Part shown: piece after piece, positions 187-18,388 of the stretch
How positions within the stretch are numbered: the stretch's first letter is position 1
Layout: every line of letters begins with the position of its first letter
Assembly: GCA_016839655.1 (NCBI GenBank)
Contig: JAEOTW010000034.1
Span: 1 to 24,050 of the forward strand
Reading direction: 5' to 3'
From: Promethearchaeota archaeon
Lineage (GTDB): Archaea; Asgardarchaeota; Lokiarchaeia; Sigynarchaeales; SOKP01
DNA: 24,050 nt
The notes under the pieces: generated by a model
Databases searched by the model: none
The model's input: only the letters and a program-made list of their open reading frames with translations
Told to the model about the DNA's origin: nothing
Translations under genes and position numbers: made by a program

Positions 187-1278
187 ATGACAACTGGAAT
201 AGTATATGATGATATTTATTTAGATCATAATATTGGAACTCATCCAGAAAGCCACAATAGATTAATTTCAATCATGGATTTTTTAAGAGAAAAAAAACTG
301 CTTGAAGATCCAAGCTTTAAAATCATTAATCCTAGAAAAGCCACCTTGGACCAAATAAGATATGTCCATAGGGACAGAATGATAAAAGAAATACAAGAAA
401 TTTGTGAGTTAAGTGCTAAAACTCGACGTCTTCAATATATCGATATGGATACAATCGCATCACCTAAGACTTATGAAGCATCCTTATATTCTGTAGGTGG
501 TAATTTACAGGCTGCAGATAAAATTTTGAATGGTAAAATAAAAAATGCATTTGCACTAGTAAGACCTCCTGGACACCACTCTAATTCCCATCGATTTTCG
601 GGGTTTTGCATATTTAATAATATTGCTATTACCGCAGAATATCTTTTTAGAGAAAAAGGGATAAAGAAAGTTGTTATTATTGATTGGGATTGTCATCATG
701 GGAATGGGACTCAAGATATTTTTTATCAAGGTTCTAAATCAGACTTCGGTGAATTAGTAATATTTAATTCTCATCAATATGGTTATTTTTATCCTGGAAC
801 GGGGAATTATGATGAAATCGGTACCGGTAAAGGAGCAGGTAAAATTATTAATTATGCAATGCCGGCTGGAGCTGCGGATGATGCTATTCCCATATTTTTT
901 GATGAAATAATCACACCTATATGCGATGAGTTTAAACCAGAGTTTATCCTAATCTCTGCGGGATTTGATACTCATTGGACCGATCAATTAACCAATATGA
1001 ATTGGACTTACCAAGCACCCGCAGATTATTTAAAAAAAATAAAAAAAATAGCACAAAAACATACTAATGATAGGATTCTTATAACTTTGGAAGGAGGATA
1101 TGAATTAGACAAACAAGCTCGCGCAGTTTATAATTGTTTAAAAGTTCTTAATGATGAGGATGAAAGCTTAATACGAGAAGATATAAGATCTTCTGGACAA
1201 AAAATGCTAGATTATTTCAATAACAAATTAATTCCCGCTTTAAAGGATAATTTAAAGCCATATTGGAAATGTTTTTAA
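187..1278 (+). CDS. Histone deacetylase-family (HDAC/AcuC/polyamine deacetylase-like) zinc hydrolase
   Basis: A complete 363-residue arginase/deacetylase-fold enzyme. The family removes acetyl groups from lysine side chains or acetylpolyamines with a catalytic zinc. The full active site is visible: the tandem histidines in RPPGHH (His130, His131), the zinc ligands Asp168 and His170 in DWDCHHGNGTQ, the third ligand Asp261 in SAGFD, and the transition-state tyrosine Tyr305 in LEGGY. The N-terminal motif GTHPESHNRL (17-26) is also typical. The length fits single-domain bacterial and archaeal class II-like HDACs, and no localisation signal or extra domain is seen. The substrate cannot be told from sequence: it could be an acetylated chromatin protein, another acetyl-lysine protein, or a small acetylated amine. 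The ATG at 187 lies just upstream of the conserved N-terminus. It is divergent from a small GTPase, and a 108 bp gap precedes the next gene. Confidence 0.9.
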   Translation: MTTGIVYDDIYLDHNIGTHPESHNRLISIMDFLREKKLLEDPSFKIINPRKATLDQIRYVHRDRMIKEIQEICELSAKTRRLQYIDMDTIASPKTYEASLYSVGGNLQAADKILNGKIKNAFALVRPPGHHSNSHRFSGFCIFNNIAITAEYLFREKGIKKVVIIDWDCHHGNGTQDIFYQGSKSDFGELVIFNSHQYGYFYPGTGNYDEIGTGKGAGKIINYAMPAGAADDAIPIFFDEIITPICDEFKPEFILISAGFDTHWTDQLTNMNWTYQAPADYLKKIKKIAQKHTNDRILITLEGGYELDKQARAVYNCLKVLNDEDESLIREDIRSSGQKMLDYFNNKLIPALKDNLKPYWKCF

Positions 1279-1295
1279 GATGTAACATACAAACA

Positions 1296-1307
1296 CTTTT
1301 ATATTTA
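1296..1307 (+). promoter_or_regulatory. Candidate TATA box for the proline-rich protein gene
   Basis: CTTTTATATTTA lies in the 108 bp gap after the deacetylase gene, about 80 bp before the ATG at 1387. It fits an archaeal TATA box with transcription starting near 1330. The downstream gene also has a good Shine-Dalgarno sequence (AAGGAG, 1375-1380), consistent with a leadered mRNA. Evidence is by pattern only. Confidence 0.35.
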
Positions 1308-1386
1308 CATTTATGCTATAATCATAATTACACGTATAAAATTATAGAAATTATTTTTAATTTATTTAAACAATAAGGAGATTAAA

Positions 1387-2295
1387 ATGTCGTATGAATA
1401 TGAGAGAAATGATGAAGATAAAGAAAAGGAAAAAAAAGAGCCTTCTTTTCCATCCATGCCCCCACCTTCAGTAACACCATTAACACCTCCTCCATCCATG
1501 CCCCCACCTTCAACAACACCACCTATGACACCTCCCCCTACATTACAACCTCCAACTCCTCCTACTTATGAACCCCCCCTACAAGCTCCAGCTCCCCCCA
1601 CATATGAACCAACTCTACAGCCAACCATTTCCACAGGACCTTCACAGGAAGAAATTGATTCTATTTACTCACAACTCCAAGAAAAAGATTCAAGTTTAAG
1701 CCAATTACAATCCCAAGTTAGTGATTTAAGCGGTCAAACATCCCAACTAAGTGCACAACTTCGAGAGAAGGAAAGTCAAGTAAATAGATTGACAAGCCAA
1801 TTACAATCAATACAATCGTCAAATGAGTCTTTTCACCAGCAAGTCCAACAACTAACAGATCAAAATGCTCAATTACAAGCACACATACCTGGATTGGAAC
1901 AACAAGTTCAAGAATTACAACAACATAATTCAATTTTGCAACAACAAATTGGTCCATTACAGGCACAAATAACAAAATTACAAGAAGAAGTTACTTATAA
2001 AGAAAAACGCATTCAAGAACTTAAAGAACCAAAAGCAGTCATGCCTTCTAGTTTAGCTCAAGGGATAACAAACCAAACAACAAGTTATAGTACCTCCCCA
2101 AGCATCTCAGCTACTCCCTCATCAACAGCAAGTCCGGCACCCTCAATGGGCGCTGGAAGAAGGATTTGCCCTAATTGTGGTGCAAGTGGTTTTGCTGTGA
2201 AAGAAGTAGAGGATAGAACTCGGATAATTAGTTATATACCCAAACCTATTTATGCAAAAAAATTAGTCTGTACTAAATGTGGATTTGAATTTTAA
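1387..2295 (+). CDS. Proline-rich, coiled-coil, C-terminal zinc-ribbon protein of unknown function
   Basis: I do not recognise a named family for the 302-residue protein. It has four visible parts. Residues 1-20 are highly charged. Residues 21-85 are proline-rich, with repeated MPPPS and TPPP units and two copies of PPTYEP. Residues 88-214 are Gln-rich heptad-like sequence (repeats such as LQSQ, LTSQLQ, VQQL) that should form a long coiled coil. A Ser/Thr/Pro linker (219-255) leads to a C-terminal zinc ribbon with ligand pairs Cys261/Cys264 and Cys295/Cys298. There is no signal peptide or membrane segment, so it is probably cytosolic. The build suggests an oligomeric scaffold presenting proline motifs at one end and a zinc ribbon at the other. 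AAGGAG at 1375-1380 supports the ATG at 1387. It appears to be a single-gene unit, with gaps of 108 bp before and 251 bp after. Confidence 0.85.
   Translation: MSYEYERNDEDKEKEKKEPSFPSMPPPSVTPLTPPPSMPPPSTTPPMTPPPTLQPPTPPTYEPPLQAPAPPTYEPTLQPTISTGPSQEEIDSIYSQLQEKDSSLSQLQSQVSDLSGQTSQLSAQLREKESQVNRLTSQLQSIQSSNESFHQQVQQLTDQNAQLQAHIPGLEQQVQELQQHNSILQQQIGPLQAQITKLQEEVTYKEKRIQELKEPKAVMPSSLAQGITNQTTSYSTSPSISATPSSTASPAPSMGAGRRICPNCGASGFAVKEVEDRTRIISYIPKPIYAKKLVCTKCGFEF
1450..1512 (+). repeat. 21 bp perfect direct repeat in the proline-rich region
   Basis: The same 21 bases, beginning CCATCCATGCCC and ending ACCTTCA, occur at 1450-1470 and 1492-1512. The period is 42 bp (14 codons). They encode the repeated SMPPPS element of the proline-rich segment. 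A more diverged repeat follows downstream encoding the two PPTYEP copies. The nucleotide identity suggests recent in-frame duplication in this tract. Confidence 0.8.
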
Positions 2296-2546: not shown

Positions 2547-5500
2547 ATGTCAGATTTAAGGGATGAAATATTAGGAGCCGGCATTAATAAAAAAAGGATT
2601 ATAGGAGTTGTATTAGTAGCAATACTTTTAATTGGTATTTTTGCTTTCTCCATGACTTTATTTAGTTTTCTTTTTGGAACCCAAAGACCAAATCCAAGCA
2701 AAGAAAAAGCTGAAACTCCTCCAGAAGATGTTGATCTAGTAGATACACCTTATCCTTTTGATGAGGACTTTTGGCAAGATTTATTGGACCAGGTAGATGA
2801 CCCTGCTTCTCTCCTTGATATGCTTTCAGAAATGCTTGATGGAGATATTGATGATTTAGATTTAGGAAATTTTTCTCAAGGTTTACTTGATCTCTTGTAT
2901 TCTGGAGCCGGAGAAATTGAAATTTTCAGAGTATATGATTATCTATCGTTTTTTAATATGTCAAATGTCTTATGGAAGTATGAATGCTTTGATGAATACA
3001 CTGGTGATGGTTGGACATCAAATGCAGTAAGTAACCTTTACGATTTTTACTCTTACGGTGATTATCTCGCTAATTATTTCCCTGATCCTGAACTCTTAAA
3101 AATTAAAATGCCATTATCCCCTGATATAGGAGCTAACTCAATGGTTGTTCCTACTCTTTTTCCAAGTCCTTTCATGATAGATGGAAGTATTTCGGCACCA
3201 AATTTAGATCCTGCCTCACCTCAGCTATTTAAAGATGAATATAATTCTACTACTTTAGATCTTACATTTTCCTTTGATGATGATGTAAATATGACATATG
3301 ATATGTTTGGATTTTATAATTACTTACCATCAAATGAAGAATTAAACACGACGGCGATGATAGTTACTAACCCTTCACCAGAATATCTAAGCTTACAGAA
3401 TACATTTTTACAATTACCTCCTACTGTCGCAGTATATAAAACAAATAATCCTTATTTCACTAATCATTTTGATATTTTGGATAATACAATAAATGCAAAT
3501 GACCATGCTTTTTGGGCAGCAAATAAAATCAGAAATTATCTTCAGACTCAGTTTTCATTTCCGATGAGCCCTGATGATTATAATCCAACACCAGAAGGAA
3601 GAGACGTTGTAGATTGGTTTTGTGAAACAGAACAGGGATTATGGTCTGATTTTGCTTCGACATTTTGTGCTTTTGCTCGAGCTTTTGGAATTATATGTCG
3701 ATTTGTTGATGGCTTCAATAGTTTAATGATTGAAGAATTTTGGGATAATGATGAGAGTCAATGGGGATTTGCTATTAAGTATAAAAACTTATATAATTGG
3801 GCAGAAATCTATGTCCCAACTGATATTTATGGAAATGGAAAATGGGTGCAATTTGATATTTTTGATAGTTATGGAGGTGGTGGAAGTCCAATAATCGGAG
3901 GTGATTATAATATCACAGTTTCAACTGATCAGACTACATATATCCGACCAGATACAGCAACTATTACTGCTGACGTTAGTTCAAATACAAACCCCGTAGA
4001 TAATCTAACTATAACCTTCAGAGATTATACCACAGGGAGAATATTAGGACAAGACGATACAGATCTAAGTGGATTTGCCTCAATTCAGACAGATTTTAAC
4101 GTTAGTGATATCATTGGGCCTCATTTAATTGAAGCAAGATATGATTTCTTTAATGCAGGTTATAATCTTACAACCTTATTAGGAGACATATCAATTGATT
4201 TGACTGATGTCAACCCTGGAGAACTAAATGTTTCAGATTCTCAACCAGATATTACTAATGTTGCAGGAATAGTATATGATCCGTTAAACGGTAAAGTAGT
4301 TGAGGGACCTGAGATAAATATCCGGTTATTTGACAAAGGAACAAACAATGAAATATCAAATCCATTCACACCTTCAGCAATTAATACTACGTATAATGGT
4401 GATTTCAATGATTTCTTGGATTTAAATTATAATACAGCCGGAAATTATGAAGTAAGAGCCGATCTTAACGGAACTTGGTGGATTGATACCCCTTTAGGTA
4501 CTTACTCATATTCTTTCTTATCTCTCATATTTCAAGTTCCCTATTATTATATAACAAACTCAAGTAACAGACTTGATTTTAATATTACAAAAGCTTTAGA
4601 TGTATGGTTCTATATTGATGGATTACCTTCAAATTATCCAAATTTACCTCCAAATTATGTAAGTGTTTCTAGATATCACAATTTAAATCTTACGGCTCGA
4701 GTTGTTTCGGTAACTATGGGACCAATTTCTAATAAGCGTGTGTTTTTTTATGATTATTCTAGAGGTGATATCCTAATTGGATCAAACATTTCAGATGCAA
4801 ATGGATTTGCCTCAATTAATTATTCTGTTGGAGATTTTAGTGCCGCAGGGCCGAATCTATTATATGCAAGAATCGGTTTACAAGCAAATTATTCTTACTA
4901 TGTCTTAGATGAAGAACCTACAATAAATATTGTTTCTGGGCCAACTCCTCGTGTCATAAACCGTACGGGTGGTGGTGCCACAGATTTTAATATTGTGGGA
5001 GAAATATATGATAGTACCAATAACTCATTACCTATAGGTTTCTCTGAGATTTCTCTTATATTATTAAGAGGTGGAGTGGATTATTCATCCTATTTAATTC
5101 CATATGAGGGTTACCCTTATCAAACGGATGATACAGGTACTTTTGATCTCACTTTTGGTGTTGCTGTAAATACTCCTCCTGGTAATTTTACCTTACGATT
5201 AGATTTTAACAGTACTATCGATCTTTCATCTTTCCCTTATTCTTGGCAATTTAATTTACTAAATTTAAATACTTCTACATATTTTAGTAATGAATTACAA
5301 GTTGATGCTCCAGCAACATTACAATTTAACTTTTGGATAAACGGGACTACATCTGATGATGCTTTCAATCCAGTAATCAATCGATATGATGACCTTAATC
5401 TCACAGCATTGATTCAATATAGTGGCACTCCAATAGATGATGGAGAATGGGTTTATTTCTATGATGTGACTCAAGATAATTTATTAATTGGATCAGCTCA

Positions 5501-7061
5501 AATAAGCTCAGGTCAAGCTCAAGTTACTTATTCAACAGGATTTAGTACAACTGCTGGACCACATTTGATTTATGCTACATGGAATAACAAATATAATTAC
5601 TCATATTTCATTTTAGATGCCCCTATTGATGTTAACCTTGATATTTGCCCACAACCTAGAGAAATTAATCGTAGTGGATCAGATGGAAGAAATTTCATAA
5701 TTCATGGCTATCTTAATGATTCACTTAACGGAAACTCTATCAAATTTGGTGAGATAAATGTTTTTATGTATGATGGACCAATTGATGTTTCATTTTATTT
5801 AAATTTAGAATTGGGATCTTTACAACTTGGAACATCAGGAGAAATAGATCTCCTCTATTCAGTTTCAAGCTCAACTCCTGCTAAAAATTATACTTTACAA
5901 ATAGATTTTAATGGAATATTTTTTTATACAAATCCCAATTATCCTCAATTTTTCGATTTATGGTATATTAGTAATTTTACGGATACAATACCTGGTTTTA
6001 ATGATTTAAGAGTTATTGATCCGGACGATATCGATATATCTTTCCTTATTAATGGGAATCCAACACAAACATTTTATTGGGATGTAAATCCTCCCGTTAG
6101 AGTAAATAGAGGAGATACAATAAACTTCAGTGTATACATCACTCAAAGTGGAGTTCCAGTCACTTCTGGTACAGTTAGGCTCTATGATGTATATAACAAT
6201 CATTTCTTATTAGGCTCTCATTTATACGATGGTTCTGAGATTCCACTTGGTCAATATAATTTTTTAATAGATACATCATTATGGCATGCAGGTCTGTTTC
6301 AGATTAAAGTAAACTGGTCTAGTTTCGCTACTTTTAACACTACATATGTGATAATTAATGAAAGAGTTAATATTTTTAGCAATATCGATCAGAGTTCTAT
6401 TTTAAGAGATATTGATAACTTTATAGTATCAGGTACAGTGAGAGAGAATGGAGAATTCTTAAGAGGTTTGAATTTAAATATAGTTTTATTGGATAGCTCA
6501 TATTCTGATGTTTCCGGTCTATATTTATTGGGTTCTCAAACAATAACCATCAATAACGATGGTTCTTATTCTTTCTTCAATTCAATTGATATTTCTTGCC
6601 CAAAAGGGAATTATTATATAAATATTACTTTTACCGGTGGTATTAATGCTCCAGGTATTTCTATGAGCGATTATATGGTTCATAATAGTAGTTTACAAAT
6701 CTCAATTGATATTACAGCAGGTACATATATTATTGGAAATTATGAGACTAATGTTTTTAAGGATCAATGGTATTACGGTGATGATTGCTATGTATACGGG
6801 AATTTGTATTGGGACAACGGAACTGCTCTGGCATTCATGGAAATTAATGTAACCATTAGAGACGGAGTTGGAGCAATTTTAGCTACTCAAGTAGGTTCTA
6901 CAGATATCAATGGATTTTTCAATCTAACATTTACAGTTAAAAATTGGTTGGAAGATACTGAAGTTTGGGTTAACTTTTATCCAGATGATCCAGACAATTT
7001 TGGTATTCCTGATGGATTGTATATAATTGCAACAGAACAAGAAGTATTTAGACAAGTGTAA
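2547..7061 (+). CDS. Giant membrane-anchored surface protein: degenerate transglutaminase-like domain plus tandem Ig-like repeats
   Basis: 1504 residues. One N-terminal membrane helix (about 18-43) follows a short charged cytosolic end, so the rest should be outside the cell. Then come an acidic linker (58-110), a partly conserved region, and a transglutaminase-like core (about 310-445) recognised by FASTF...ARAFGI.CRFVDGF (369-390), YNWAEIYVP (416-424) and WVQFD (433-437). In the usual Cys-His-Asp triad the Cys position is Trp366 and the His position is Tyr416; only Asp437 remains. The enzyme is therefore probably inactive. Residues about 460-1490 are beta-rich Ig-like domains in a repeat of about 240 residues, with many N-x-S/T sequons (NLT, NYS, NRT, NFT), consistent with N-glycosylation. 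No C-terminal anchor is seen. It is first gene of the presumed operon, 30 bp from the next. The role is inferred as an adhesive or cell-envelope ectodomain. Confidence 0.85.
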   Translation: MSDLRDEILGAGINKKRIIGVVLVAILLIGIFAFSMTLFSFLFGTQRPNPSKEKAETPPEDVDLVDTPYPFDEDFWQDLLDQVDDPASLLDMLSEMLDGDIDDLDLGNFSQGLLDLLYSGAGEIEIFRVYDYLSFFNMSNVLWKYECFDEYTGDGWTSNAVSNLYDFYSYGDYLANYFPDPELLKIKMPLSPDIGANSMVVPTLFPSPFMIDGSISAPNLDPASPQLFKDEYNSTTLDLTFSFDDDVNMTYDMFGFYNYLPSNEELNTTAMIVTNPSPEYLSLQNTFLQLPPTVAVYKTNNPYFTNHFDILDNTINANDHAFWAANKIRNYLQTQFSFPMSPDDYNPTPEGRDVVDWFCETEQGLWSDFASTFCAFARAFGIICRFVDGFNSLMIEEFWDNDESQWGFAIKYKNLYNWAEIYVPTDIYGNGKWVQFDIFDSYGGGGSPIIGGDYNITVSTDQTTYIRPDTATITADVSSNTNPVDNLTITFRDYTTGRILGQDDTDLSGFASIQTDFNVSDIIGPHLIEARYDFFNAGYNLTTLLGDISIDLTDVNPGELNVSDSQPDITNVAGIVYDPLNGKVVEGPEINIRLFDKGTNNEISNPFTPSAINTTYNGDFNDFLDLNYNTAGNYEVRADLNGTWWIDTPLGTYSYSFLSLIFQVPYYYITNSSNRLDFNITKALDVWFYIDGLPSNYPNLPPNYVSVSRYHNLNLTARVVSVTMGPISNKRVFFYDYSRGDILIGSNISDANGFASINYSVGDFSAAGPNLLYARIGLQANYSYYVLDEEPTINIVSGPTPRVINRTGGGATDFNIVGEIYDSTNNSLPIGFSEISLILLRGGVDYSSYLIPYEGYPYQTDDTGTFDLTFGVAVNTPPGNFTLRLDFNSTIDLSSFPYSWQFNLLNLNTSTYFSNELQVDAPATLQFNFWINGTTSDDAFNPVINRYDDLNLTALIQYSGTPIDDGEWVYFYDVTQDNLLIGSAQISSGQAQVTYSTGFSTTAGPHLIYATWNNKYNYSYFILDAPIDVNLDICPQPREINRSGSDGRNFIIHGYLNDSLNGNSIKFGEINVFMYDGPIDVSFYLNLELGSLQLGTSGEIDLLYSVSSSTPAKNYTLQIDFNGIFFYTNPNYPQFFDLWYISNFTDTIPGFNDLRVIDPDDIDISFLINGNPTQTFYWDVNPPVRVNRGDTINFSVYITQSGVPVTSGTVRLYDVYNNHFLLGSHLYDGSEIPLGQYNFLIDTSLWHAGLFQIKVNWSSFATFNTTYVIINERVNIFSNIDQSSILRDIDNFIVSGTVRENGEFLRGLNLNIVLLDSSYSDVSGLYLLGSQTITINNDGSYSFFNSIDISCPKGNYYINITFTGGINAPGISMSDYMVHNSSLQISIDITAGTYIIGNYETNVFKDQWYYGDDCYVYGNLYWDNGTALAFMEINVTIRDGVGAILATQVGSTDINGFFNLTFTVKNWLEDTEVWVNFYPDDPDNFGIPDGLYIIATEQEVFRQV
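3942..6746 (+). repeat. Four tandem ~240-residue protein repeats
   Basis: Within the giant surface protein the same pair of beta domains recurs. The first half is marked at residues 471-477 (ATITADV), 712-718 (LNLTARV), 950-956 (LNLTALI) and 1192-1198 (INFSVYI), a spacing of 238-242. Each is followed by a (F/L)YD...L(I/L)GS motif and, in most copies, a GP/AG...LIYA-like strand. The second half is marked by VINRTGG (803) and EINRSGS (1039), with weaker partners near 565 and 1283. The two middle copies are clearly most alike. The coordinates are approximate and similarity is at protein level only. Confidence 0.75.
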
Positions 7062-7091
7062 TGATGAAAGAAAGGGTGAAAACAAAATAAA

Positions 7092-8690
7092 ATGAAAAAA
7101 CTAAAGATTCCTAAATATTTCAAACAAAAAAATAAGGCAATTGGGATCTTTTTAATTATTTTAACTATTATAATTAGTTTCAATTCAATTAGTAACCTGT
7201 TTTTTAATAATAACAATAATAAGACTAATTCAAATCCAGAAATGTCTGGTTTTTTATGGGCTACATTAGATCTTACAAATCCTTTAGAAGTAAATAATTC
7301 TCGTTTCACTCACTATGCATCCATCGTTGTGAAAGGACGTCTTTATAATATTTTTAACGAATCAATTGATACTTCAGGAGTAAATGTCGCAATTGAAATT
7401 GATGATATAGTTGATATGGGATTTACTAATGTAACAGGTTTAAACGGATATTTTATTATTCGTTATACTATTGATCCTTATCTTGATGTATATTCAAGCC
7501 ATAAAGTAGAAGTCATTGTAACAGATACAGAACCAGGAGGACCTGGTAGTGAGATAGAATACCACCACTTTTACACTATATATGTCAATGCAACGTCATA
7601 TTTTAATATAATATCACATGATGATACTTCAACTCCTAAGTTAACTGAAGAAGCTTTCAATCTGAATGGATACTTATATTTTGATAATGGAAATGGCATT
7701 CCATTTATGAGTGTAAATTATTTTTGGTTCGATGGATCTTTAATCATCTCCCAAGGCTCTTTTTTTACTGATGCCTTAGGTTCATTAACAAACTTGCAAG
7801 TCCCTATTACTTCCACCAACCAATTAACCTTGAAATTAAATTACTCAGATTCTCCATTTGTTGACTACTCAGAAACCTCAATATTAAATATTAAAGTATT
7901 TTCAGATATAACTTGGAATTTGGATATTGATTATACTACTAGAGAAAGAGCTATATATACACTAAATGGTATCTTATCGTCTAGCACAGATCCTTCTTTA
8001 AAAATAAGTAACAGGGATGTTGAAGTTTATTTTAATGGAACCTATGTTGCAACTGCAACAACAAGAGCGGATGGCAGTTTTACATCTAATTTTCAAGTTC
8101 CTGATGGTAATGGAACGGCATCAATCCAAGTTCAATTAGTTGATTTTGCAGGAAAAGATATCAGTTCACCTGTTCAGTATATACTCGTAGAACAAGCACT
8201 CCCATCAAATCCTGGATTCGGTGATTTACCTCCTTTTTTAATTTTTTCTTTAATCTTTTTTCCCATTTTAGCAGGTGTAGTTGCAGTGCTGGTTGTATAC
8301 GGTTATAAATACTATAAAAAACAAGAAAAAGAATCTCGAGTGGTCAGTATACCACTAGAATCAAAATTTATAAATCTCAAGATCCTTAAAGATTCAGGAA
8401 GGTTAGAAGAGTCTATTTCATATTTATTCAATGCAATATATATGGATTTAATTGATGCTAAGTATAATCGAAAAAGAAAAGAAAATGAAACAATAAGAGA
8501 CTTTGCGATTATTTCAGTAAAAGAGTTAAAATTAACACCATCATCAATATATCCATTTATTCAAAAAGTTGAGGAAATAATATATGCAAAACCGTTTAAA
8601 ATAACAGAAAAAGATTTCTATAATACATGTGAATTATTTTCACCAATTTATTTCCAATTAACAGGATATAATTTCAATTTAAATTTTTAA
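7092..8690 (+). CDS. Two-TM Ig-like ectodomain protein with cytosolic DUF4129-like helical tail
   Basis: 532 residues. Membrane helix 1 is about 16-38. The external region (50-370) is beta-rich with sequons and Ig/carboxypeptidase-regulatory-like segments, for example around 285-350 with RADGSF. Membrane helix 2 is about 382-406, followed by a basic stop-transfer (YKYYKKQEK). A cytosolic all-helical domain (about 418-532) follows, with the signature NETIRDFAI and FIQKVEEIIY. This tail resembles the DUF4129 domain found at the C-terminus of bacterial TgpA-type transglutaminases (recognised by pattern, not by search). The same domain is encoded alone by the next gene. It lies 30 bp after the giant surface protein, whose ectodomain style it shares, so the two probably assemble together. 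It likely passes a cytosolic signal or force to the outside. No enzymatic motif was seen. Confidence 0.8.
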   Translation: MKKLKIPKYFKQKNKAIGIFLIILTIIISFNSISNLFFNNNNNKTNSNPEMSGFLWATLDLTNPLEVNNSRFTHYASIVVKGRLYNIFNESIDTSGVNVAIEIDDIVDMGFTNVTGLNGYFIIRYTIDPYLDVYSSHKVEVIVTDTEPGGPGSEIEYHHFYTIYVNATSYFNIISHDDTSTPKLTEEAFNLNGYLYFDNGNGIPFMSVNYFWFDGSLIISQGSFFTDALGSLTNLQVPITSTNQLTLKLNYSDSPFVDYSETSILNIKVFSDITWNLDIDYTTRERAIYTLNGILSSSTDPSLKISNRDVEVYFNGTYVATATTRADGSFTSNFQVPDGNGTASIQVQLVDFAGKDISSPVQYILVEQALPSNPGFGDLPPFLIFSLIFFPILAGVVAVLVVYGYKYYKKQEKESRVVSIPLESKFINLKILKDSGRLEESISYLFNAIYMDLIDAKYNRKRKENETIRDFAIISVKELKLTPSSIYPFIQKVEEIIYAKPFKITEKDFYNTCELFSPIYFQLTGYNFNLNF

Positions 8691-8806
8691 TTCAAATATT
8701 ATAAAAACCCCAAATATAAAATTTAAAATTAAGTACAAAGAAATATAAATTCAAAAAAAATTAATAATTAAATTATTCGAAAAAATACAAAAATAGGTAG
8801 AAAATA

Positions 8807-9184
8807 ATGGCAAAAAAGAAAAAAAAACAACCAGAACCAGAGATTAATATTAAGCAGAAGTTTGATAACGTGAAGATTCTCGTTGAAACAAATAGACCCA
8901 AGGAGGCAATAGCCTATATATATCTAGTGTATGATGATCTTATTAATATAAAATTTAAAAAACCTAGATTATCTCATCAAACTATTCGCGAATTTGCTAT
9001 TGCTTGTGTAAATGAATTAGAAAAAAAATTAAAACCAGAAGTTGTGTATCCATTTATAAAAAAAATAGAAGATATAATCTATGGTGGGGTTGAACCTACA
9101 ACTAAAGAACTAAACTTTACAATTGATTTGTTTACTAATCTATATAACGAAATAACGGGGAAGTCATTCACATTTAAGCTGTAG
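8807..9184 (+). CDS. Small soluble stand-alone DUF4129-like helical protein
   Basis: 125 residues with no membrane segment. A lysine-rich start (MAKKKKKQPEPE) is followed by an all-helical domain (16-125). This aligns along its length with the C-terminal tail of the preceding gene product: KFDNVKILVETNRPKEAI, TIREFAI and YPFIKKIEDIIYGG match KFINLKILKDSGRLEESI, TIRDFAI and YPFIQKVEEIIYAK. It is therefore a paralogous single-domain copy, probably cytosolic. It could compete or co-assemble with the membrane-bound tails, or act as an adaptor for the MoxR ATPase encoded downstream. The start ATG at 8807 has no clear Shine-Dalgarno sequence. The 116 bp gap before it is the largest in the operon before the DUF58 gene and is AT-rich, so a separate promoter is possible. 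Confidence 0.85.
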   Translation: MAKKKKKQPEPEINIKQKFDNVKILVETNRPKEAIAYIYLVYDDLINIKFKKPRLSHQTIREFAIACVNELEKKLKPEVVYPFIKKIEDIIYGGVEPTTKELNFTIDLFTNLYNEITGKSFTFKL

Positions 9185-9238
9185 GATTAAGAAGTATTAA
9201 TATTTGTTATAATCTCAATATACTAAAAAGCAATCACA

Positions 9239-11014
9239 ATGGTAAAACAAAGAAAAGCCTCTCAAAAGAGTATAAATATTTCCAAAGTAATAGTGTTCAT
9301 ATTTTTAACTATATACTTATTTATTTTTGGAATTATTATTAGTGATTTTATTGTTCATATACAACAAGAAAATCCAGGTAACTTACCCGCTTGGTGGGGT
9401 TTTATAACCTATGTCCCTCTTTTATGTTATTTTGGGGGAATTTTTAGTGGTGCTTTTCTTATTATATTTATAAGAAATGCTACTACTATAAAAACACGTC
9501 AAACACAATCTCGAAAGAAAATTAAATCTGGTTCAATATATAAACAAGCATTATTTGTCTTAATATTTATTTTTGTGTTTATTCCTTTATTTTCTCCCAT
9601 CATTGACAGAGGAAAAAATACTCAAAATTTTTCAGTTTACAATCCCGCTTGGAATGGAGCCACAGACTTTAAAACAGCTATTGAAAATGATGGATATGAT
9701 GTTATGACTGTACAATCAAGTCTGAGTGCCACTGATAGACTAATAAATACAACAATCAATAATCATTTTAAAGAATCAATACTACTGATTTTACTAGGTC
9801 CAAATCAATTTTATGATCCTATTTTCGAAATTCCTTATTTTATTGAATTTTTTAAAGGTACTAATTCACTTCTAATATGTCATGATCATGGTTCTACAAG
9901 TACACTATTATGGGAAATTTTACTTGCGAGTTTGTTTGATCCTAGTATTAATATTCCCTTAACAATATTTCCTGACGGAGTTTTACGAGATAATCAATCC
10001 TATGATACAACACCAGAATTTCCTGTTATCCAAAATTTTGCTCCTCATCCTACTACAGTCGGTATTAGTGAAGTTATACTATCAGTGGCTTCTTGTGCAG
10101 TAGGAGGACCTTTTATTAGTGCATTCGGTTGGAATTCTGTAGGTACTTCATCTGCTTACTCATTTATTGATAAAAACGATGATGGGAGATATACTGAACC
10201 GGAAGACACACTAAATTTGGGTTTTATGAGTTTAATTGATTTAGGATTCCCATTTCCTTCCACTTTTCCACTTGGAGTATATGACCAACATGTATTTTTA
10301 GCAAATGATATGGGAACACAACGAGTTTTTGTATCTGCCGATGCCAGTTTATTTAATAATGAACTAATTAATGATCCTCTCTATGATAATAGGCAATTTG
10401 GAATAAATATAATTCAATGGCTAACGCAAGTGAATGAAGGAAGGACTAGGGATGAATGGTTAGTAGTTTTTGATGAAGCTCACATAAGACCAGAATATTC
10501 TCGAGATCTTACATCCGCGGGAATTTTTGGTTTTGTAATGCAATATATCGTCCACTTGTCGACCAATCCAATCACAGCTTGGATTTATCCATTATTAGCA
10601 TTTTATTCCTTACGGAAATACCTCCCTAAAAAGGATAAGAAGAAGGAAGAGCAAAAAATAGCTGAAGAAGAGGAAAAGAAAGAAGAAATCGCTAGATTTA
10701 GAACCTCCTCCTTTTTTGCAAAAAAGATTGAAGAATATAAAGATAAAATGAAATATGGAGATGCATTAAAACTGCTTTATAGAAGGCTCGAAAGGAAATT
10801 GAATAGTCAATTGGGAGGAGCAAAAATTACAACACAAAATGTTATTGATTTGGTTATTTCAAAAGATCCTTCAGCTACAAAATTAAAAACAAGAAGATTA
10901 AGTAAATTTATGGAGAAAATATTAGCAATTAAAGAAGGTAAAGATAAAGTTAAAACTGAACAAGATTTCGAAGAATTATTTTACGAAATGGATTGGGCAG
11001 TTAATAATATTTAG
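9239..11014 (+). CDS. DUF4350-like membrane protein with extracytoplasmic amidotransferase-like domain and cytosolic tail
   Basis: 591 residues. Three membrane helices (about 15-38, 54-79, 102-121) are followed by an outside alpha/beta domain (130-425). Its opening pattern, FKTAIENDGYDV then a strand LLILLGPNQ, recalls the class I glutamine amidotransferase-like fold of DUF4350, a family often found beside MoxR and DUF58 genes. WLVVFDEAHIRPEYSRD (407-423) ends this domain, and a last membrane helix follows (427-458). No catalytic Cys-His pair is obvious, so it is probably a binding domain. The cytosolic part has a Lys/Glu coiled coil (462-487) and a helical domain (490-591) with the layout of the tails in the two preceding proteins. 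A calcium-loop-like segment DKNDDGRYTEPE sits at 311-322. The family call is by pattern and context. Confidence 0.7.
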   Translation: MVKQRKASQKSINISKVIVFIFLTIYLFIFGIIISDFIVHIQQENPGNLPAWWGFITYVPLLCYFGGIFSGAFLIIFIRNATTIKTRQTQSRKKIKSGSIYKQALFVLIFIFVFIPLFSPIIDRGKNTQNFSVYNPAWNGATDFKTAIENDGYDVMTVQSSLSATDRLINTTINNHFKESILLILLGPNQFYDPIFEIPYFIEFFKGTNSLLICHDHGSTSTLLWEILLASLFDPSINIPLTIFPDGVLRDNQSYDTTPEFPVIQNFAPHPTTVGISEVILSVASCAVGGPFISAFGWNSVGTSSAYSFIDKNDDGRYTEPEDTLNLGFMSLIDLGFPFPSTFPLGVYDQHVFLANDMGTQRVFVSADASLFNNELINDPLYDNRQFGINIIQWLTQVNEGRTRDEWLVVFDEAHIRPEYSRDLTSAGIFGFVMQYIVHLSTNPITAWIYPLLAFYSLRKYLPKKDKKKEEQKIAEEEEKKEEIARFRTSSFFAKKIEEYKDKMKYGDALKLLYRRLERKLNSQLGGAKITTQNVIDLVISKDPSATKLKTRRLSKFMEKILAIKEGKDKVKTEQDFEELFYEMDWAVNNI

Positions 11015-11070
11015 TCATTTTTACAATATCAAATAAAAAATAAATAAAAATATTATAAAAAAAAATAATC

Positions 11071-11075
11071 GAGGT
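11071..11075 (+). promoter_or_regulatory. Shine-Dalgarno of the moxR gene
   Basis: GAGGT lies 9 bp before the ATG at 11085 and supports that start. Most other genes of this operon lack such a clear site. Confidence 0.5.
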
Positions 11076-11084
11076 TAAAAATAA

Positions 11085-12065
11085 ATGGAAGCTCCAGACA
11101 AAGCAAAATATTATGACCATGAAGAAATTGATGTAGCACCTATAAGAGAGATAGCTCAGGAAGTTCTAAGTGAAGTAAGTCGAGTTATTGTAGGGAATGG
11201 TGAAATTTTGCAGCAATTATTTATAGCTTTACTTGTTAATGGCCATGTACTATTAGAAGGAGTTCCTGGTCTAGGTAAAACTGTAATGGCAAAAACTTTT
11301 GCTAAAACACTTGGTATATCATTTCGAAGAGTTCAATTCACACCTGATTTATTACCAGCAGATATTACTGGTACAAAAATTTTTGATCAGAATGAAGGTG
11401 CTTTTGTACTACAAAAAGGACCACTTTTTGCGAACATGGTACTAGCTGATGAAATTAACAGAAGTGCTCCTAAAACACAATCAGCTCTACTTGAGGCTAT
11501 GGCGGAACGTCAAATAACTATTGAGGGTCAAACTTTACAACTTGAAAAACCCTTCATAGTAATTGCAACAGAAAATCCAGTAGAAATGGAAGGAACTTAT
11601 CCACTACCAGAAGCTCAAGTTGATAGATTCTTATTCAAACTCTGGCTAGACTATCCTGAGCAAGATGAAGAGGTAGAAATTATGCGTCGACAAATTTCAG
11701 GTGAATCACCTTCTGTTGATATAATCACAACTGGTGAAGAAATCCTTGCAGCGCAGAAGATTATGAATTTGGTTTATATTGATGATCGAATTCTTAAATA
11801 TGTTCGAGATATCATTTTAAAAACTAGAAATCATCCCCAAATTGCGCTTGGATGTGGACCAAGAGCTAGTTTAACTCTTATGAAATGTGCGAAAGCTCGT
11901 GCTGCAATTCTCGGTCGATCTTATGTGACTCCTGATGATGTACGAGCATTGATAGTCCCAGCATTAAATCACAGACTTCTTTTAAAACCTGAAGCAGAAT
12001 TAGAAGGACTTGATACAAAGGCTGTTCTTAAATCAATTGTTGAGGAAATATCAATCCCTATCTAA
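11085..12065 (+). CDS. moxR: MoxR-family AAA+ ATPase
   Basis: 326 residues, the usual size for MoxR. These AAA+ ATPases act as chaperones that assemble or activate partner complexes, typically with a von Willebrand-type or DUF58 protein encoded next door. Visible parts: Walker A GVPGLGKT (59-66), the family loop FTPDLLPADITG (85-96), Walker B VLADE (119-123) with INRSAPKTQSALLEAM after it, sensor 1 ATENP (161-165), the arginine in VDRF (Arg181), and the lid region with GPRASL near 263. All catalytic residues are intact. The protein has no membrane segment and should work at the inner face of the membrane. The DUF58 gene follows directly and the tail-domain proteins precede it, which makes those tails its likely substrates or docking sites. 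Confidence 0.95.
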   Translation: MEAPDKAKYYDHEEIDVAPIREIAQEVLSEVSRVIVGNGEILQQLFIALLVNGHVLLEGVPGLGKTVMAKTFAKTLGISFRRVQFTPDLLPADITGTKIFDQNEGAFVLQKGPLFANMVLADEINRSAPKTQSALLEAMAERQITIEGQTLQLEKPFIVIATENPVEMEGTYPLPEAQVDRFLFKLWLDYPEQDEEVEIMRRQISGESPSVDIITTGEEILAAQKIMNLVYIDDRILKYVRDIILKTRNHPQIALGCGPRASLTLMKCAKARAAILGRSYVTPDDVRALIVPALNHRLLLKPEAELEGLDTKAVLKSIVEEISIPI

Positions 12066-12214
12066 ACCAATTTTTTTATGGTTAAGTTTTTAATCAGAAT
12101 AAATGAAAAAAATATTAAACAAGGTGTAGTTTTATATTAGGAGGTAAAGGTAGAAGTTTAATTTTATTTGCTGTATTTTTTCTTACAGCAGGATTTGCAT
12201 TTGTAAATTATTTC

Positions 12215-13462
12215 TTGATTTACTTCGCAATTCTATTACTATTTAGTACGATCATTAGTTTACCAATCTTCTATTATAAAATGAATATAGAAGAATTACA
12301 AGTACATAGAGAACTTGAGAAAGAAAAAGTATTTAAAGATGACTTTGTTCATGTAAAGGTAGTCATAGAAAATATAGGCCGAAATAGCTTTGATTTCATT
12401 GAAATAAGAGATAATTATAATCCACAGTTATTTAGGTTAATCTTAGGTGAGAATTTTATATCTACTAGAATTGGACCAAAAGACTTAATTAAATTTTCAT
12501 ATGTTCTTGAACCAAAAGTAAGAGGAGAATATGCTCTCGGACCTCTATCAATAATAGTAAAAGATAGATTAGGATTTAATTCAGTTGAACGTATCGTACC
12601 TGATAGTGTTACAGATATCCTTATTTACCCTCCTTATGAAGATATTAAAAGAATTGAAATTTTAGGCTCAAAACGATCTTTACAATTAAACTATGGTTTG
12701 CAAAGATCGAAACAAAAAGGACTCGGATCTGAATTTTATGGGATGCGGAAATATGTCTTTGGAGATCAATTTAGATTGATAGATTGGAAAGCAAGCGCTA
12801 GATCGCAAACTTTAATCGTTAAAGAGTATGAAAGTGAAAGAGATGTAACTGTAATGATTATTGTAGATTCATCTGATACAATGGCGGGTGGAGCAATTGA
12901 GAATACAAAATTTGAATATGCAATAAGAGCCTGTATGCTCTTAACAAAAGTTGCTCTAACACGACGAGATAACGTAGGAGTTTTTACATTCTCAGATAAG
13001 AAAAATTTGAAATTCTTGAAGCCAAATTCAGGAGAAGATCACTTTTATCAAGTATTAGATTTTGTAGCAAGAGTAAAACCACAAGGAAAGTGTAAATTCA
13101 TGGAAGCCATGGATCATTTTACAAAACGTTTTCAAAAACGCAGTTTAGTTTTTATTATATCTGATTTAGAAGCAAATCCAAAGGATATAGCTCAAGCTGT
13201 TAAGAAATTAGTCCCATTCAATCATTCGATAATAATTATTAATCCTTTCAGTCCATGGTTCGAGATTCATGAAATAGATTTATCTTCAACAGACAAAGCT
13301 TTAGCAGAAGCAATTAGTGAAGAAATGATGGAACATATTTTATCTATTAGACAAAATCTTCGAAATTTGGGGATCAATATAATAACTTGTGGACCTGATG
13401 ATATGATGAATCAAGTTTTAAGTAATTATATGGAAGCAAAAAAGAAAGGAAAGGCATACTAA
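12215..13462 (+). CDS. DUF58 protein, membrane-anchored with vWA-like domain (5' end uncertain)
   Basis: The 415 residues shown begin at an in-frame TTG, but the real protein probably starts upstream. The frame is open from 12119 and encodes GGKGRSLILFAVFFLTAG and more, completing the two-helix hairpin usual at the N-terminus of DUF58 proteins. No ATG, GTG or TTG exists in that stretch (see findings). In the numbering used here there is a membrane helix (2-20), an Ig-like beta region (about 28-140), the DUF58 signature GSEFYGMRKYVFGDQFRLIDWKASAR split over 171-196, and a vWA-like fold whose metal site reads DSSDT (218-222), i.e. D-x-S-x-T instead of the usual D-x-S-x-S. DUF58 proteins are standard partners of MoxR, whose gene precedes. 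Its partner role here is inferred from that pairing. The next gene starts 17 bp downstream. Confidence 0.85.
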   Translation: MIYFAILLLFSTIISLPIFYYKMNIEELQVHRELEKEKVFKDDFVHVKVVIENIGRNSFDFIEIRDNYNPQLFRLILGENFISTRIGPKDLIKFSYVLEPKVRGEYALGPLSIIVKDRLGFNSVERIVPDSVTDILIYPPYEDIKRIEILGSKRSLQLNYGLQRSKQKGLGSEFYGMRKYVFGDQFRLIDWKASARSQTLIVKEYESERDVTVMIIVDSSDTMAGGAIENTKFEYAIRACMLLTKVALTRRDNVGVFTFSDKKNLKFLKPNSGEDHFYQVLDFVARVKPQGKCKFMEAMDHFTKRFQKRSLVFIISDLEANPKDIAQAVKKLVPFNHSIIIINPFSPWFEIHEIDLSSTDKALAEAISEEMMEHILSIRQNLRNLGINIITCGPDDMMNQVLSNYMEAKKKGKAY

Positions 13463-13468
13463 GGGAGG
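13463..13468 (+). promoter_or_regulatory. Shine-Dalgarno before the polytopic membrane protein gene
   Basis: GGGAGG-like sequence immediately after the DUF58 stop codon (bases 13463-13468), about 11 bp before the ATG at 13480. It indicates coupled translation from the same mRNA. A second ATG at 13470 is in another frame and leads nowhere useful. Confidence 0.5.
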
Positions 13469-13479
13469 AATGTTAAGAT

Positions 13480-14946
13480 ATGACTCGAATATATATATTG
13501 TCATTAAAAATAATTAATCTATCATTGTTCGCCTGGCTGTTTGTTATTTTTCTTACTTCAATCTTTCATTTTGATACTGTGGTCGTAACAGCTGATAATG
13601 AATTTGTATTATTTGCATTTTTAGGAGCATTAAAAAACGTTTTCTCATATGCTATTTATGGATTTTTATTCATTATCGCTTATGGTTTAGCATTTATTTT
13701 TGGTGGAGCATTCAATAGTTATTTGTTTAATTTTGTTGAGGGTTTTTTTCAAGGTTATTTGAGTAATTGGTTTTCAATCCCTCAACCTGAATTACAGAAC
13801 ATTCCCAATTTAATATTAAGTGAATTAGGAGTACTTTTTAATGATCTTTATTTGTTTATTTTTCAAGTCTTATTCGTTATTTCAGTTATATATGCCATCA
13901 GAGGTTTTTTCAAAAGCGATCCTAGGAATTCATTTGTAGCAATTGGCTCAATCGTTCTTATGATTATTGTCCCCTTGATGATAGTAGGGTTAAGAGATAT
14001 GTTGAATTTGTTCCTAGGAAATTTACCTCCAGAAAGTAGACCAGAGTTTGTACAACAAATCTACCAAATGGCCTCAACTAATCCTCTTGATGATAATCTT
14101 ACTCAAGTTCCCATAGATAATCTATTTCAGTTTTTAGCGAGTCCAGTTATTTTATTTGCAATTATTTCATATATTTATCTCGAACTGACATTTCAAATAA
14201 CCTATGCTGATACAGTTACCAAACCTTCTGTAGAGAGAAGTGAAAGATTAGAAGCCCAATTAAATATTTTAGCTAGAGAATCACATTTCATAACCGCAAA
14301 TATCGATAAGATTAAAGAAGAAGCTAAAGAAAGAATGAAAGAAATTGAAGCAGAGCAGCAAGAAGGATTAGTTGTTGGAAAATTCTTTGCAAAAACAGGA
14401 AGGCGATTTTCCTATGTAAAAGAAATGATCGAAAGGAGAAAACTAGAGGAAGAGGAGAAAAAATTAGTAACTGCAGCCTCAAAAACTAGAAGACTTGGGA
14501 AGTATATTGATCGTCTTTTCCGAGAAGATCCTGAAGCTAGAGATACATTAACTGCAAGTTCTTCAGCTCCTCGGGTTCGAAATTTGGCAACATCTACTTT
14601 ATTCAATTTTATTTATCGTGTAGGCTTACTTATGATAATAAGTTTCATCATTATTCATCCATATTGGTTTTTAAATACAGTGCTACAATTACCTGATGCA
14701 ATTACTGAAAGTGTTGCAATGTATTCTCCTGAAGTCATTATAATAATACTCGGACCAATCATGTTAATATTTCCAGTAATTTCAAAACTAATTTCATTTA
14801 TCAAGCATAGAAATTTAATAATTCGATTACAGCAAGAAGGACGTATAAAAGAACTTCTGACTTCAGTTGGGGACTATGTTATAAAGGAAGAAGCTCAAGC
14901 AACAATTGAGGAAGAAACCAAGGAAGTAGCAACTGAATCCGCATAA
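13480..14946 (+). CDS. Polytopic membrane protein, last gene of the MoxR-DUF58 operon, unknown family
   Basis: 488 residues. I do not recognise a family. About seven membrane segments can be seen: near 7-29, 42-72 (possibly two), 120-143, 152-178, 214-240, 375-397 and 416-441. Between the fifth and sixth lies a large, highly charged, helical region (245-370) with coiled-coil character (for example KIKEEAKERMKEIEAEQQEG and ERRKLEEEEKK), probably cytosolic. The C-terminal 45 residues are acidic and cytosolic-looking. No catalytic motif or pore signature was recognised. It follows the DUF58 gene by 17 bp with its own Shine-Dalgarno sequence, and MoxR/DUF58 clusters often include a multi-pass membrane partner. 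It may be the membrane core on which the tail-domain proteins and DUF58 assemble. This is inference from position only. Confidence 0.8.
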   Translation: MTRIYILSLKIINLSLFAWLFVIFLTSIFHFDTVVVTADNEFVLFAFLGALKNVFSYAIYGFLFIIAYGLAFIFGGAFNSYLFNFVEGFFQGYLSNWFSIPQPELQNIPNLILSELGVLFNDLYLFIFQVLFVISVIYAIRGFFKSDPRNSFVAIGSIVLMIIVPLMIVGLRDMLNLFLGNLPPESRPEFVQQIYQMASTNPLDDNLTQVPIDNLFQFLASPVILFAIISYIYLELTFQITYADTVTKPSVERSERLEAQLNILARESHFITANIDKIKEEAKERMKEIEAEQQEGLVVGKFFAKTGRRFSYVKEMIERRKLEEEEKKLVTAASKTRRLGKYIDRLFREDPEARDTLTASSSAPRVRNLATSTLFNFIYRVGLLMIISFIIIHPYWFLNTVLQLPDAITESVAMYSPEVIIIILGPIMLIFPVISKLISFIKHRNLIIRLQQEGRIKELLTSVGDYVIKEEAQATIEEETKEVATESA

Positions 14947-17332: not shown

Positions 17333-18388
17333 TTAGAGATTAGAATATCTTTTAATATCTGCTTTCTTACTTTCAGCAAACTTTTCAAATTTAATAGGAA
17401 TTGCACAACAAGCAGAGAAAAATTTGAATTGAATTTTAGAATTGTAGTTTTTTAGCCACACTAAGGTCTCTTTAGAGGGAATTTCAATTCTAGTTATACC
17501 TGCTTGAATAGCAGCTTTTTCAATTTCAATCTTAATTTTTCCTCTAGGTCTCATACATCCTAATGATATTTCTGTCTCAGGAAAAGCAACTCTAACGATT
17601 GAAATAACCTTGGCAATATCTTCAGGTTTTGGAGTATCAAATTTGATCTTAGAATCCTTTGGTGGTATTAATATAATAATTACTATCAGAGACGGATTGA
17701 TTTTGCTTTCTTTAATAAATTTTATAGATTCAATTTCTTTATTGAGCTTTCCATAATGTAGACCAATGCATATATGAGGCACAATATTTAATTTATATTT
17801 CTTTAAGATTTCTATTGCTCTTTTATATTCATTTAATTCAATATTTAAATGATAAATATTCTTTACAACATCCTCATCCATATTAATGTCAAAGGAGACA
17901 ATATCAACATTTGCTTCAGCAATTTTCTTTGCTGTTTCTTCATTTAATAATCCTGTATGGGTATTTATTATCAAATTTGTTTCTTTCTTTACTTTTTTAA
18001 TAGTATTTAAAAATTCTAATAATGGTACTGAACCATCAACCATACTCCCACCTGATATTAAAGCGCCTACACCACTCTTATTAGATAAATCAAATAGAAA
18101 TTTTTCGAGCTCCTCTTTTGTTAGAATTTGTCTCATACCTTTCAAATATTTCTTGTTACAATGTTCACATTCCAAGGCACACTCACTTCCCGTAATACTT
18201 ATTGCGGGAAATCTATTTGTGGGATTATATATTTTAAAAACATTATTAAAATTGCTTCGAGTGATCTTTTGAGTTAAAGCAAATAGATCATCAAGATCAT
18301 TTGAATTTAACTCTAAAATATTTAGAAAATCTTCCCATGAAGCGGATTTGGTCTCCAATTTCTCTATTAATATTCTACTATTATTCAT
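17333..18388 (-). CDS. Radical SAM enzyme, biotin-synthase-like (COG1856 type), probable LipS-type lipoyl synthase subunit
   Basis: 351 residues. The radical SAM cluster motif is C-x3-C-x2-C in GSECALECEHC (Cys70, Cys74, Cys77), preceded by FPAISITG, which with ALISGGS (109-115) and VPLLEFL (121-127) is the pattern I associate with COG1856, the 'uncharacterised homologue of biotin synthase'. Additional cysteines at Cys278 (LGCMRPRG) and Cys327-Cys328 near the C-terminus could hold an auxiliary cluster that supplies sulfur. In archaea, two such radical SAM proteins (LipS1 and LipS2) together insert both sulfurs of lipoate. Here one lies on each side of a lipoate ligase gene, which supports that role. 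I cannot tell LipS1 from LipS2. The start is the ATG at 18388, 8 bp inside the end of the ligase gene, which suggests translational coupling. Confidence 0.75.
   Translation of the reverse strand: MNNSRILIEKLETKSASWEDFLNILELNSNDLDDLFALTQKITRSNFNNVFKIYNPTNRFPAISITGSECALECEHCNKKYLKGMRQILTKEELEKFLFDLSNKSGVGALISGGSMVDGSVPLLEFLNTIKKVKKETNLIINTHTGLLNEETAKKIAEANVDIVSFDINMDEDVVKNIYHLNIELNEYKRAIEILKKYKLNIVPHICIGLHYGKLNKEIESIKFIKESKINPSLIVIIILIPPKDSKIKFDTPKPEDIAKVISIVRVAFPETEISLGCMRPRGKIKIEIEKAAIQAGITRIEIPSKETLVWLKNYNSKIQFKFFSACCAIPIKFEKFAESKKADIKRYSNL

What the first reader, a model, noticed from the sequence alone, without database searches (positions are those of the whole stretch)
2547..14946. A seven-gene MoxR-DUF58 surface assembly with its parts split and multiplied
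Seven genes in one direction encode a MoxR ATPase, a DUF58 vWA-like protein, a DUF4350-like protein, two further proteins with DUF4129-like cytosolic tails, a multi-pass membrane protein and a 1504-residue ectodomain with a transglutaminase-like core. In bacteria the TgpA-type protein combines membrane segments, transglutaminase and DUF4129 tail in one chain beside MoxR and DUF58. Here those modules are on separate genes, with large Ig-like glycosylated ectodomains added. The proposal is that the ATPase acts on cytosolic tails to assemble or switch a surface complex of non-enzymatic ectodomains. I know of no described function for such a system in Asgard archaea.
Basis: partly seen in the sequence, partly recalled or inferred. 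Interest (0 to 1): 0.75.

Follow-up and report, generated by a model that had tools for sequence, protein, structure and literature searches.

The report
Asgard MoxR-DUF58 surface complex, split chain
Seven neighbouring genes of a Lokiarchaeon look like an ATP-driven device that handles large cell-surface proteins; most relatives keep it, and its enzyme-like outer part has lost its active site.

Summary
The seven co-directional genes (2547-14946) are real: A (transglutaminase-like ectodomain), B (ectodomain, TM, tail), C (125 aa), D (DUF4350), MoxR, DUF58, G (multi-pass). All 42 Lokiarchaeial loci fetched keep the order as far as contig ends or scaffold gaps allow. In the wider phylum 216 of 227 genomes have DUF58, and D-MoxR-DUF58-G are contiguous in 30 of 38 regions read.

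In 13 regions one chain carries both transglutaminase and DUF4129-type tail, so the Lokiarchaeial split is probably derived. B's tail and C are DUF4129-type through relatives, not by direct Pfam hit. In the window and all 24 other Lokiarchaeial copies aligned, catalytic Cys and His are replaced; four Asgard domains and a haloarchaeal TgpA keep Cys-His-Asp.

By content this belongs to the known MoxR-DUF58-TgpA/DUF4129 kind. New: near-universality in Asgard archaea, enzyme-to-scaffold change, gene fission, a G family without Pfam or PDB relative. That MoxR-DUF58 remodels the tails to assemble a surface complex is inference.

The parts
2547..7061 (+). A: 1504-aa anchored ectodomain; one N-terminal TM (18-36), degenerate transglutaminase domain (about 317-437), then about four ~250-aa repeats; no C-terminal tail
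3495..3857 (+). transglutaminase core of A (Pfam residues 317-437); catalytic triad columns read W-Y-D instead of C-H-D
7092..8690 (+). B: 532 aa; TM 16-34, ectodomain with weak Big_6/Big_13 similarity, TM 384-402, DUF4129-type tail
8346..8687 (+). DUF4129-type tail of B (from residue 419)
8807..9184 (+). C: 125-aa DUF4129-type protein without predicted TM
9239..11014 (+). D: 591 aa; three N-terminal TMs, DUF4350 domain (below Pfam cut-off here, above it in relative L139), C-terminal tail from about residue 486 with remote similarity to DUF4129
11085..12065 (+). E: MoxR AAA+ ATPase, 326 aa; GLGKT, DEIN and ATENP motifs each in 35 of 35 family sequences
12134..13462 (+). F: DUF58/vWA protein, 442 aa if started at ATA 12134 (listed ORF starts at TTG 12215); vWA motif DSSx(S/T)
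13480..14946 (+). G: 488-aa membrane protein, 7 predicted TMs; relatives across the phylum; no Pfam family, no credible PDB relative

Best explanation
A TgpA-type MoxR-DUF58 membrane system of Asgard archaea, turned in Lokiarchaeia into a non-enzymatic surface-assembly device. Shown here: gene content, phylum-wide order, A and B modules in one chain with a DUF4129-type tail in relatives, loss of the transglutaminase active site, intact ATPase motifs. Inferred: A and B form one extracellular complex with D; the MoxR hexamer, with the membrane-anchored DUF58 vWA protein as adaptor, grips and remodels the tail of B (and perhaps of D) under ATP, which assembles, switches or turns over the outer complex; C is a tail copy released from the membrane that competes with or bridges the tails; G is the membrane scaffold.
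For: Order A-B-C-D-E-F-G in all 42 Lokiarchaeial loci as far as contigs allow; L019 and L034, which lack the upstream genes, break at 100-N gaps. D-E-F-G contiguous in 30 of 38 non-duplicate regions from the phylum, often with overlapping or nearly touching genes. DUF58 in 216 of 227 genomes, exactly one in 6 of 6 Lokiarchaeial genomes searched. 13 regions fuse transglutaminase and tail in one chain; in L139 PF01841 1.9e-19, Big_1 8.3e-10 and PF13559 1.6e-7 lie in one protein. Split parts of a chain fused elsewhere usually work together. Tree of MoxR+DUF58: two fused/split changes. C vs B tail profiles 99.87%. Active-site loss. ATPase motifs intact. Ectodomains evolve fast and the ATPase slowly (median identity A 49%, B 47%, MoxR 88%, DUF58 85%). 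MoxR proteins typically work with vWA partners to remodel targets (PMC13036017, abstract); vWA-MoxR/GvpN gene pairs are linked to thaumarchaeal pili (PMC4858521, passages).
Against: No binding, structure or expression data. D tail vs DUF4129 is weak: 81-88% with wide, partly overlapping profiles, but 0.14% (vs C) and 8% (vs B tail) with Lokiarchaeia-only ones. The fused chain of L137 has no PF13559 hit at E<=1 and its C scores below cut-off (21.7 vs 24.8 bits). L131, L132, L134, L136 have ectodomain plus tail without transglutaminase hit; L079 likewise; L096, L145, L147 show C-D-E-F-G with no recognisable A or B in the 5 kb or so read upstream. 8 of 40 regions lack a full D-E-F-G: L084, L086, L149 cut by contig ends, L085 without recognisable G, L080 and L146 fragmentary, L150 arranged otherwise, L091 a different DUF58 copy. 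In P. aeruginosa PA2875 of the tgpA unit appeared non-essential (PMC3507681, passages).
Confidence: 0.6

Rival explanations
1. An active TgpA-like enzyme: the outer domain cross-links or cleaves surface proteins and MoxR-DUF58 activates it through the tail.
For: Transglutaminase core at Pfam significance; triad intact in L139, L143, L144, in domain 1 of L083 and in Halorussus TgpA; the periplasmic domain of P. aeruginosa TgpA was assayed as a transglutaminase (PMC3507681, passages).
Against: In the window and all 24 other Lokiarchaeial copies aligned the catalytic Cys is W, F or Y and the His is Y; in L081, L082, L093, L098, L141 Cys, His and Asp are all replaced.
Confidence: 0.1
2. The MoxR-DUF58 pair serves another client, for example cofactor insertion into a membrane enzyme, and the ectodomains are adhesins that merely share the operon.
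For: NorQD and RavA-ViaA type MoxR-vWA pairs act on respiratory enzymes (search listing; NorQD abstract).
Against: The linkage of DUF4129-type tail, DUF4350, MoxR and DUF58 recurs across the phylum and in pieces in haloarchaea. What other genes flank the locus outside Lokiarchaeia was not annotated, so a further client is not excluded.
Confidence: 0.2
3. An archaeal conflict (defence) system of the MoxR-vWA ternary type.
For: The window MoxR passes Pfam bpMoxR, named after MoxR-vWA-beta-propeller ternary systems (39.1 vs 27 bits), far below its AAA_3 score of 217; a paper on NTP-dependent conflict systems with many MoxR mentions exists (PMC7159879, search listing only).
Against: No PADLOC model for any of the seven proteins at E<=1e-5; one DUF58 per genome in 6 of 6 Lokiarchaeial genomes, constant neighbours, conservation across the phylum.
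Confidence: 0.03

Closest known systems
TgpA unit of Pseudomonas aeruginosa (PA2875-PA2874-tgpA; PMC3507681, passages)
   Same: Co-transcribed unit with an outer transglutaminase domain on a membrane protein; the Asgard domain profile matches PDB 6g49 at 2e-13. That 6g49 is TgpA, that PA2875 and PA2874 are MoxR and DUF58, and that TgpA bears DUF4129 are recalled, not read.
   Different: Here the active site is lost, only one N-terminal TM precedes the domain, large repeats are added, the chain is split, DUF4350 and G are added.
PFNA operon of bifidobacteria (PMC8430577, passages)
   Same: Large secreted FN3 glycoprotein, MoxR-type AAA ATPase, DUF58 and a membrane transglutaminase in one cluster.
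   Different: Includes kinase PKB2; DUF4350, a stand-alone DUF4129 gene and G are not among the genes named in the passages seen.
Haloarchaeal clusters on plasmids
   Same: Halobellus ramosii: DUF4350-MoxR-703-aa ectodomain with CarboxypepD_reg and a DUF4129-like end (PF13559 6.5e-4, below cut-off). Halorussus vallis: TgpA_N-TG-Fn3_arc-DUF4129 chain, a 206-aa protein, DUF58, then a 14-TM DUF7519 protein.
   Different: Pieces lie in separate clusters (the gene tables are incomplete); Halorussus triad intact; the 3 downstream multi-TM haloarchaeal proteins tested do not match the G profile.
NorQD MoxR-vWA complex (PMC13036017, abstract)
   Same: MoxR hexamer with vWA partner; the working model borrowed here.
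   Different: Serves metal insertion into nitric oxide reductase.
vWA-MoxR/GvpN pairs and transglutaminase genes linked to archaeal type IV pili (PMC4858521, passages)
   Same: MoxR/vWA and transglutaminase genes beside archaeal surface structures.
   Different: Linked there to pilus loci in separate lineages; no pilus family was found among the seven proteins by Pfam.

Membership tests
MoxR AAA+ ATPase | AAA_3 core with Walker A/B, AAA_lid_2 | tested here: met
   PF07726 8.6e-65, PF17863 5.7e-25; motifs in 35 of 35 sequences; PDB 2r44 at 7.3e-84
DUF58 vWA protein | PF01882 above cut-off, vWA metal motif DxSxS/T | tested here: met
   117.7 bits vs 23.4; the five commonest forms, 32 of 36 sequences, all fit; the other 4 were not printed
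DUF4350 | PF14258 above curated cut-off | tested here: inconclusive
   window D 22.4 bits vs cut-off 30.4; homologue L139 65.5 bits, L148 18.7 bits
DUF4129 (B tail and C) | PF13559 above curated cut-off | tested here: inconclusive
   no hit for window B tail or C; homologues at the same place pass (L141 C 39 bits, L139 tail 31.7; 114 of 227 genomes) or fall short (L137 C 21.7; L131 tail 18.1); Lokiarchaeial C profile finds L081 C at 5e-9
DUF4129 (D tail) | significant similarity to DUF4129 | tested here: inconclusive
   no PF13559 hit for 6 of 6 D tails; wide profile comparison 81-88%, 14 controls at or below 1.2%
Active transglutaminase | catalytic Cys-His-Asp | tested here: not met
   W-Y-D in the window, register from 6g49
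TgpA-type system | MoxR, DUF58, transglutaminase core and DUF4129 encoded together | tested here: met
   (DUF4129 through relatives)
TgpA-type system | TgpA_N (PF11992) multi-TM N-terminus in the same chain | tested here: not met
   one N-terminal TM in A, no PF11992 at E<=1; relative L137 has a 28-residue match below cut-off, 2.1e-4
MoxR-vWA conflict system | match to defence-system models | tested here: not met
   0 PADLOC hits at E<=1e-5 for 7 proteins

The most novel reading that the evidence does not exclude
Asgard archaea ancestrally carry one conserved ATP-driven machine that builds or remodels their outer surface. In Lokiarchaeia, and separately in the L081/L082 clade, its transglutaminase was turned into a non-catalytic scaffold, and the chain was broken up so that the ATPase can switch the surface complex through exchangeable DUF4129-type tails. 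It could underlie the complex surface proteins seen by cryo-tomography in Lokiarchaeum.
Probability: 0.3. Interest if true: 0.85.

Novelty: new variant of a known kind. Interest (0 to 1): 0.62.

Why it matters
Cultured Lokiarchaea show complex, irregular surface proteins on a single membrane and lack a highly ordered S-layer (PMC9834061, passages); I saw nothing there on what assembles them. A near-universal locus in the phylum gives a named, testable candidate. The series intact enzyme, partly broken enzyme, dead scaffold, together with fused chain versus split genes, is a natural experiment on what the MoxR-DUF58-DUF4129 module needs.

Tried and rejected
Direct Pfam and NCBIfam scans for DUF4129 in the window's B and C: nothing; solved by relatives. 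Single-sequence PDB search with the A domain: one chance hit at E 0.4; an 18-row profile gave 6g49. PDB searches for G (best E 0.52), DUF4129-type domain (best E 0.028) and a D homologue as single sequence (best E 0.4): nothing credible. Rfam and tRNA scans: empty. Defence: no PADLOC hit. Whole-protein self-BLAST of A showed no off-diagonal repeat; cutting it in pieces did. Two changes were also counted for triad states on the tree; not used, since that count does not polarise losses. OST48_N and IFT52_GIFT hits in a D homologue: below cut-off, not pursued. A Kineococcus plasmid TgpA-like gene had no MoxR or DUF58 among its listed neighbours (table incomplete).

The 40 regions were chosen by me from listed DUF58 places for contig length and spread, not at random. 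L002, L006, L008, L010, L026 and L028 show a short 'C' at a contig start that is the end of B. L049-L078 and L099-L128 were not used for order counts.
Full report
What is there. The window holds seven + strand genes between 2547 and 14946 with gaps of at most 116 bases if DUF58 starts at 12134. A 251-base gap precedes them and a gene on the other strand follows. Domains: A has a transglutaminase core (PF01841, 1.3e-12); B only weak Big_6/Big_13; C nothing credible; D DUF4350 below cut-off; E MoxR; F DUF58; G none. Hydropathy marks one TM in A, two in B, none in C, three N-terminal ones in D (plus one segment inside its outer domain and none before its tail) and seven in G (a simple scale, not a topology predictor). 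A contains about four copies of a ~250-aa unit (best pair 2e-34).

Conservation in Lokiarchaeia. A scan of genome contigs with an 18-row alignment of D gave 42 loci, all with Lokiarchaeal record titles. 35 of 42 hold D-E-F-G contiguously, some D being cut by contig starts and MoxR of L032 lying in two ORFs; the other 7 are cut downstream by contig ends. 21 of 42 also show A-B-C-D; the rest begin within or after these genes, except L019 and L034, which have 10 kb upstream but break at 100-N gaps. 17 of 42 loci show the HDAC gene upstream, 16 of these with the coiled-coil gene. Median identity to the window is 88% for MoxR and 85% for DUF58 but 49% for A and 47% for B.

The rest of the phylum. 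DUF58 is found in 216 of 227 genomes at E<=0.001, 215 over cut-off (the phylum is Promethearchaeota by the L019 record). Of 40 regions read, 32 have D-E-F-G contiguous on one strand; two repeat Lokiarchaeial loci, so 30 of 38, of which 3 (L087, L088, L095) fall inside the Lokiarchaeial clade on the tree. Misses: L084, L086, L149 (contig ends), L085 (no recognisable G), L080 and L146 (fragments), L150 (other arrangement), L091 (a different, 313-aa DUF58). Clade names of these genomes are withheld by the tool. DUF4129 (PF13559) passes its cut-off in 114 of 227 genomes, with hits both in long chains and in short proteins; I checked the place against this locus only for genomes whose region was read, for example G195, where the hit is gene C of L081.

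Fused chain. In 13 regions one protein carries both the transglutaminase and the DUF4129-type tail (L082, L083, L084, L092, L093, L133, L135, L137, L138, L139, L142, L143, L144). In L139 Pfam finds PF01841, Big_1 and PF13559 in one chain, all above cut-off; L137 has PF01841 but no PF13559. In L081, L098 and L141 the long protein ends soon after its last TM and the tail is on gene C, which has its own TM. In Lokiarchaeia and L148 A, B and C are separate and C has no predicted TM; L089 and L090 are split too. L131, L132, L134, L136 have no transglutaminase hit, and L096, L145, L147 no recognisable A or B. On a tree of MoxR+DUF58 (49 rows) Lokiarchaeia plus L148 form a supported group (100/99) nested with fused lineages; fused/split needs two changes (the program warns of long branches, and the root is not known). 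That the fused form is older is inferred from its spread and from the haloarchaeal chain.

Tails. Lokiarchaeial C and B-tail profiles match at 99.87% (1.1e-31). The D tail against them reaches 81-88% only with profiles widened over the phylum, 0.14% and 8% with Lokiarchaeial ones; 14 control comparisons stayed at or below 1.2%. I call C and the B tail DUF4129-type by bridging, and the D tail possibly so.

Enzyme to scaffold. A profile of 18 Asgard transglutaminase rows (window included) hits the solved domain 6g49 (E 2e-13), which fixes the register (the listing calls it protein-glutamine gamma-glutamyltransferase, that it is TgpA is recalled). One search placed 46 rows, some also in those 18, one (L097) a duplicate of L011. 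The 24 distinct Lokiarchaeial rows (by title, or by tree position for L087, L088, L095) all read W, F or Y for Cys and Y for His; Asp is kept except in L020 (Glu). The window reads W-Y-D. L081, L082, L093, L098, L141 have none of the three residues. L092, L137, L142 read S-H-D; L135, L138 G-H-D; L133 G-H-E; second domains of L083 and L084 P-H-D; first domain of L084 C-Y-D; L148 S-Y-E; L089 and L090 are too divergent to place. Intact C-H-D: L139, L143, L144 and the first domain of L083. Halorussus TgpA is C-H-D.

Mechanism. MoxR motifs are intact in 35 of 35 and the DUF58 metal motif fits in the 32 of 36 sequences printed. By analogy with MoxR-vWA pairs (PMC13036017, abstract) I propose ATP-driven remodelling of DUF4129-type tails. 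The mechanism is inferred; the parts and their distribution are shown.

Known or new. One search (MoxR, DUF58, Asgard) found no paper. One search found 27 papers with two or more of six terms, 15 listed; none of the 15 titles concerns this locus, and the three that pair Asgard archaea with one other term were not read. One search (Lokiarchae-, MoxR) found one long paper, not read. The library holds open-licence papers only. Bacterial TgpA (PMC3507681), the PFNA operon (PMC8430577) and haloarchaeal clusters make this a variant of a known kind. Whether G or the full order exists outside the phylum was not settled: the 120 listed hits of the G search named no organism outside Asgard groups where a name was given, but 412 were found and 292 not listed.

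Noticed in passing
window 12134-12136; start of DUF58 in L001-L042: At the aligned start (xLGGKGR or close to it, 442 codons before the end) 19 of 36 Lokiarchaeial genes have ATT (11), ATA (7, the window among them) or ATC (1), 17 have ATG; in the 19 the first ATG/GTG/TTG lies downstream and GGTG stands in the 30 bases before. Suggests regular use of rare AUH start codons.
   Followed up: partly
window 17333-20187 (- strand): LipS1, lipoate ligase and LipS2 genes side by side, next to F420 genes cofD and cofE-nitroreductase. The ligase is found at >=80% length in 30 of 42 loci; L030 lacks the trio at this place.
   Followed up: partly
window 20375-23164: Leucyl-tRNA synthetase of bacterial type (TIGR00396 955 bits; archaeal TIGR00395 316 bits) in an archaeon.
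   Followed up: no
window 187-2295: Histone-deacetylase-family protein and a 302-aa proline-rich coiled-coil protein with a CxxC-bearing end stand before the operon, also in 16 of the 17 Lokiarchaeial loci that show the deacetylase.
   Followed up: no
L139:11892-13253: D homologue has weak matches to OST48_N and IFT52_GIFT besides DUF4350, below cut-offs.
   Followed up: no
L091:4280-12576: A second MoxR and short DUF58 (313 aa) locus of another layout; many genomes (for example most of G012-G041) hold 2-5 DUF58 copies.
   Followed up: no
L083:13407-18116 and L084:2019-6743: Two transglutaminase domains in tandem in one chain; first one with Cys kept, second with Cys replaced by Pro.
   Followed up: partly
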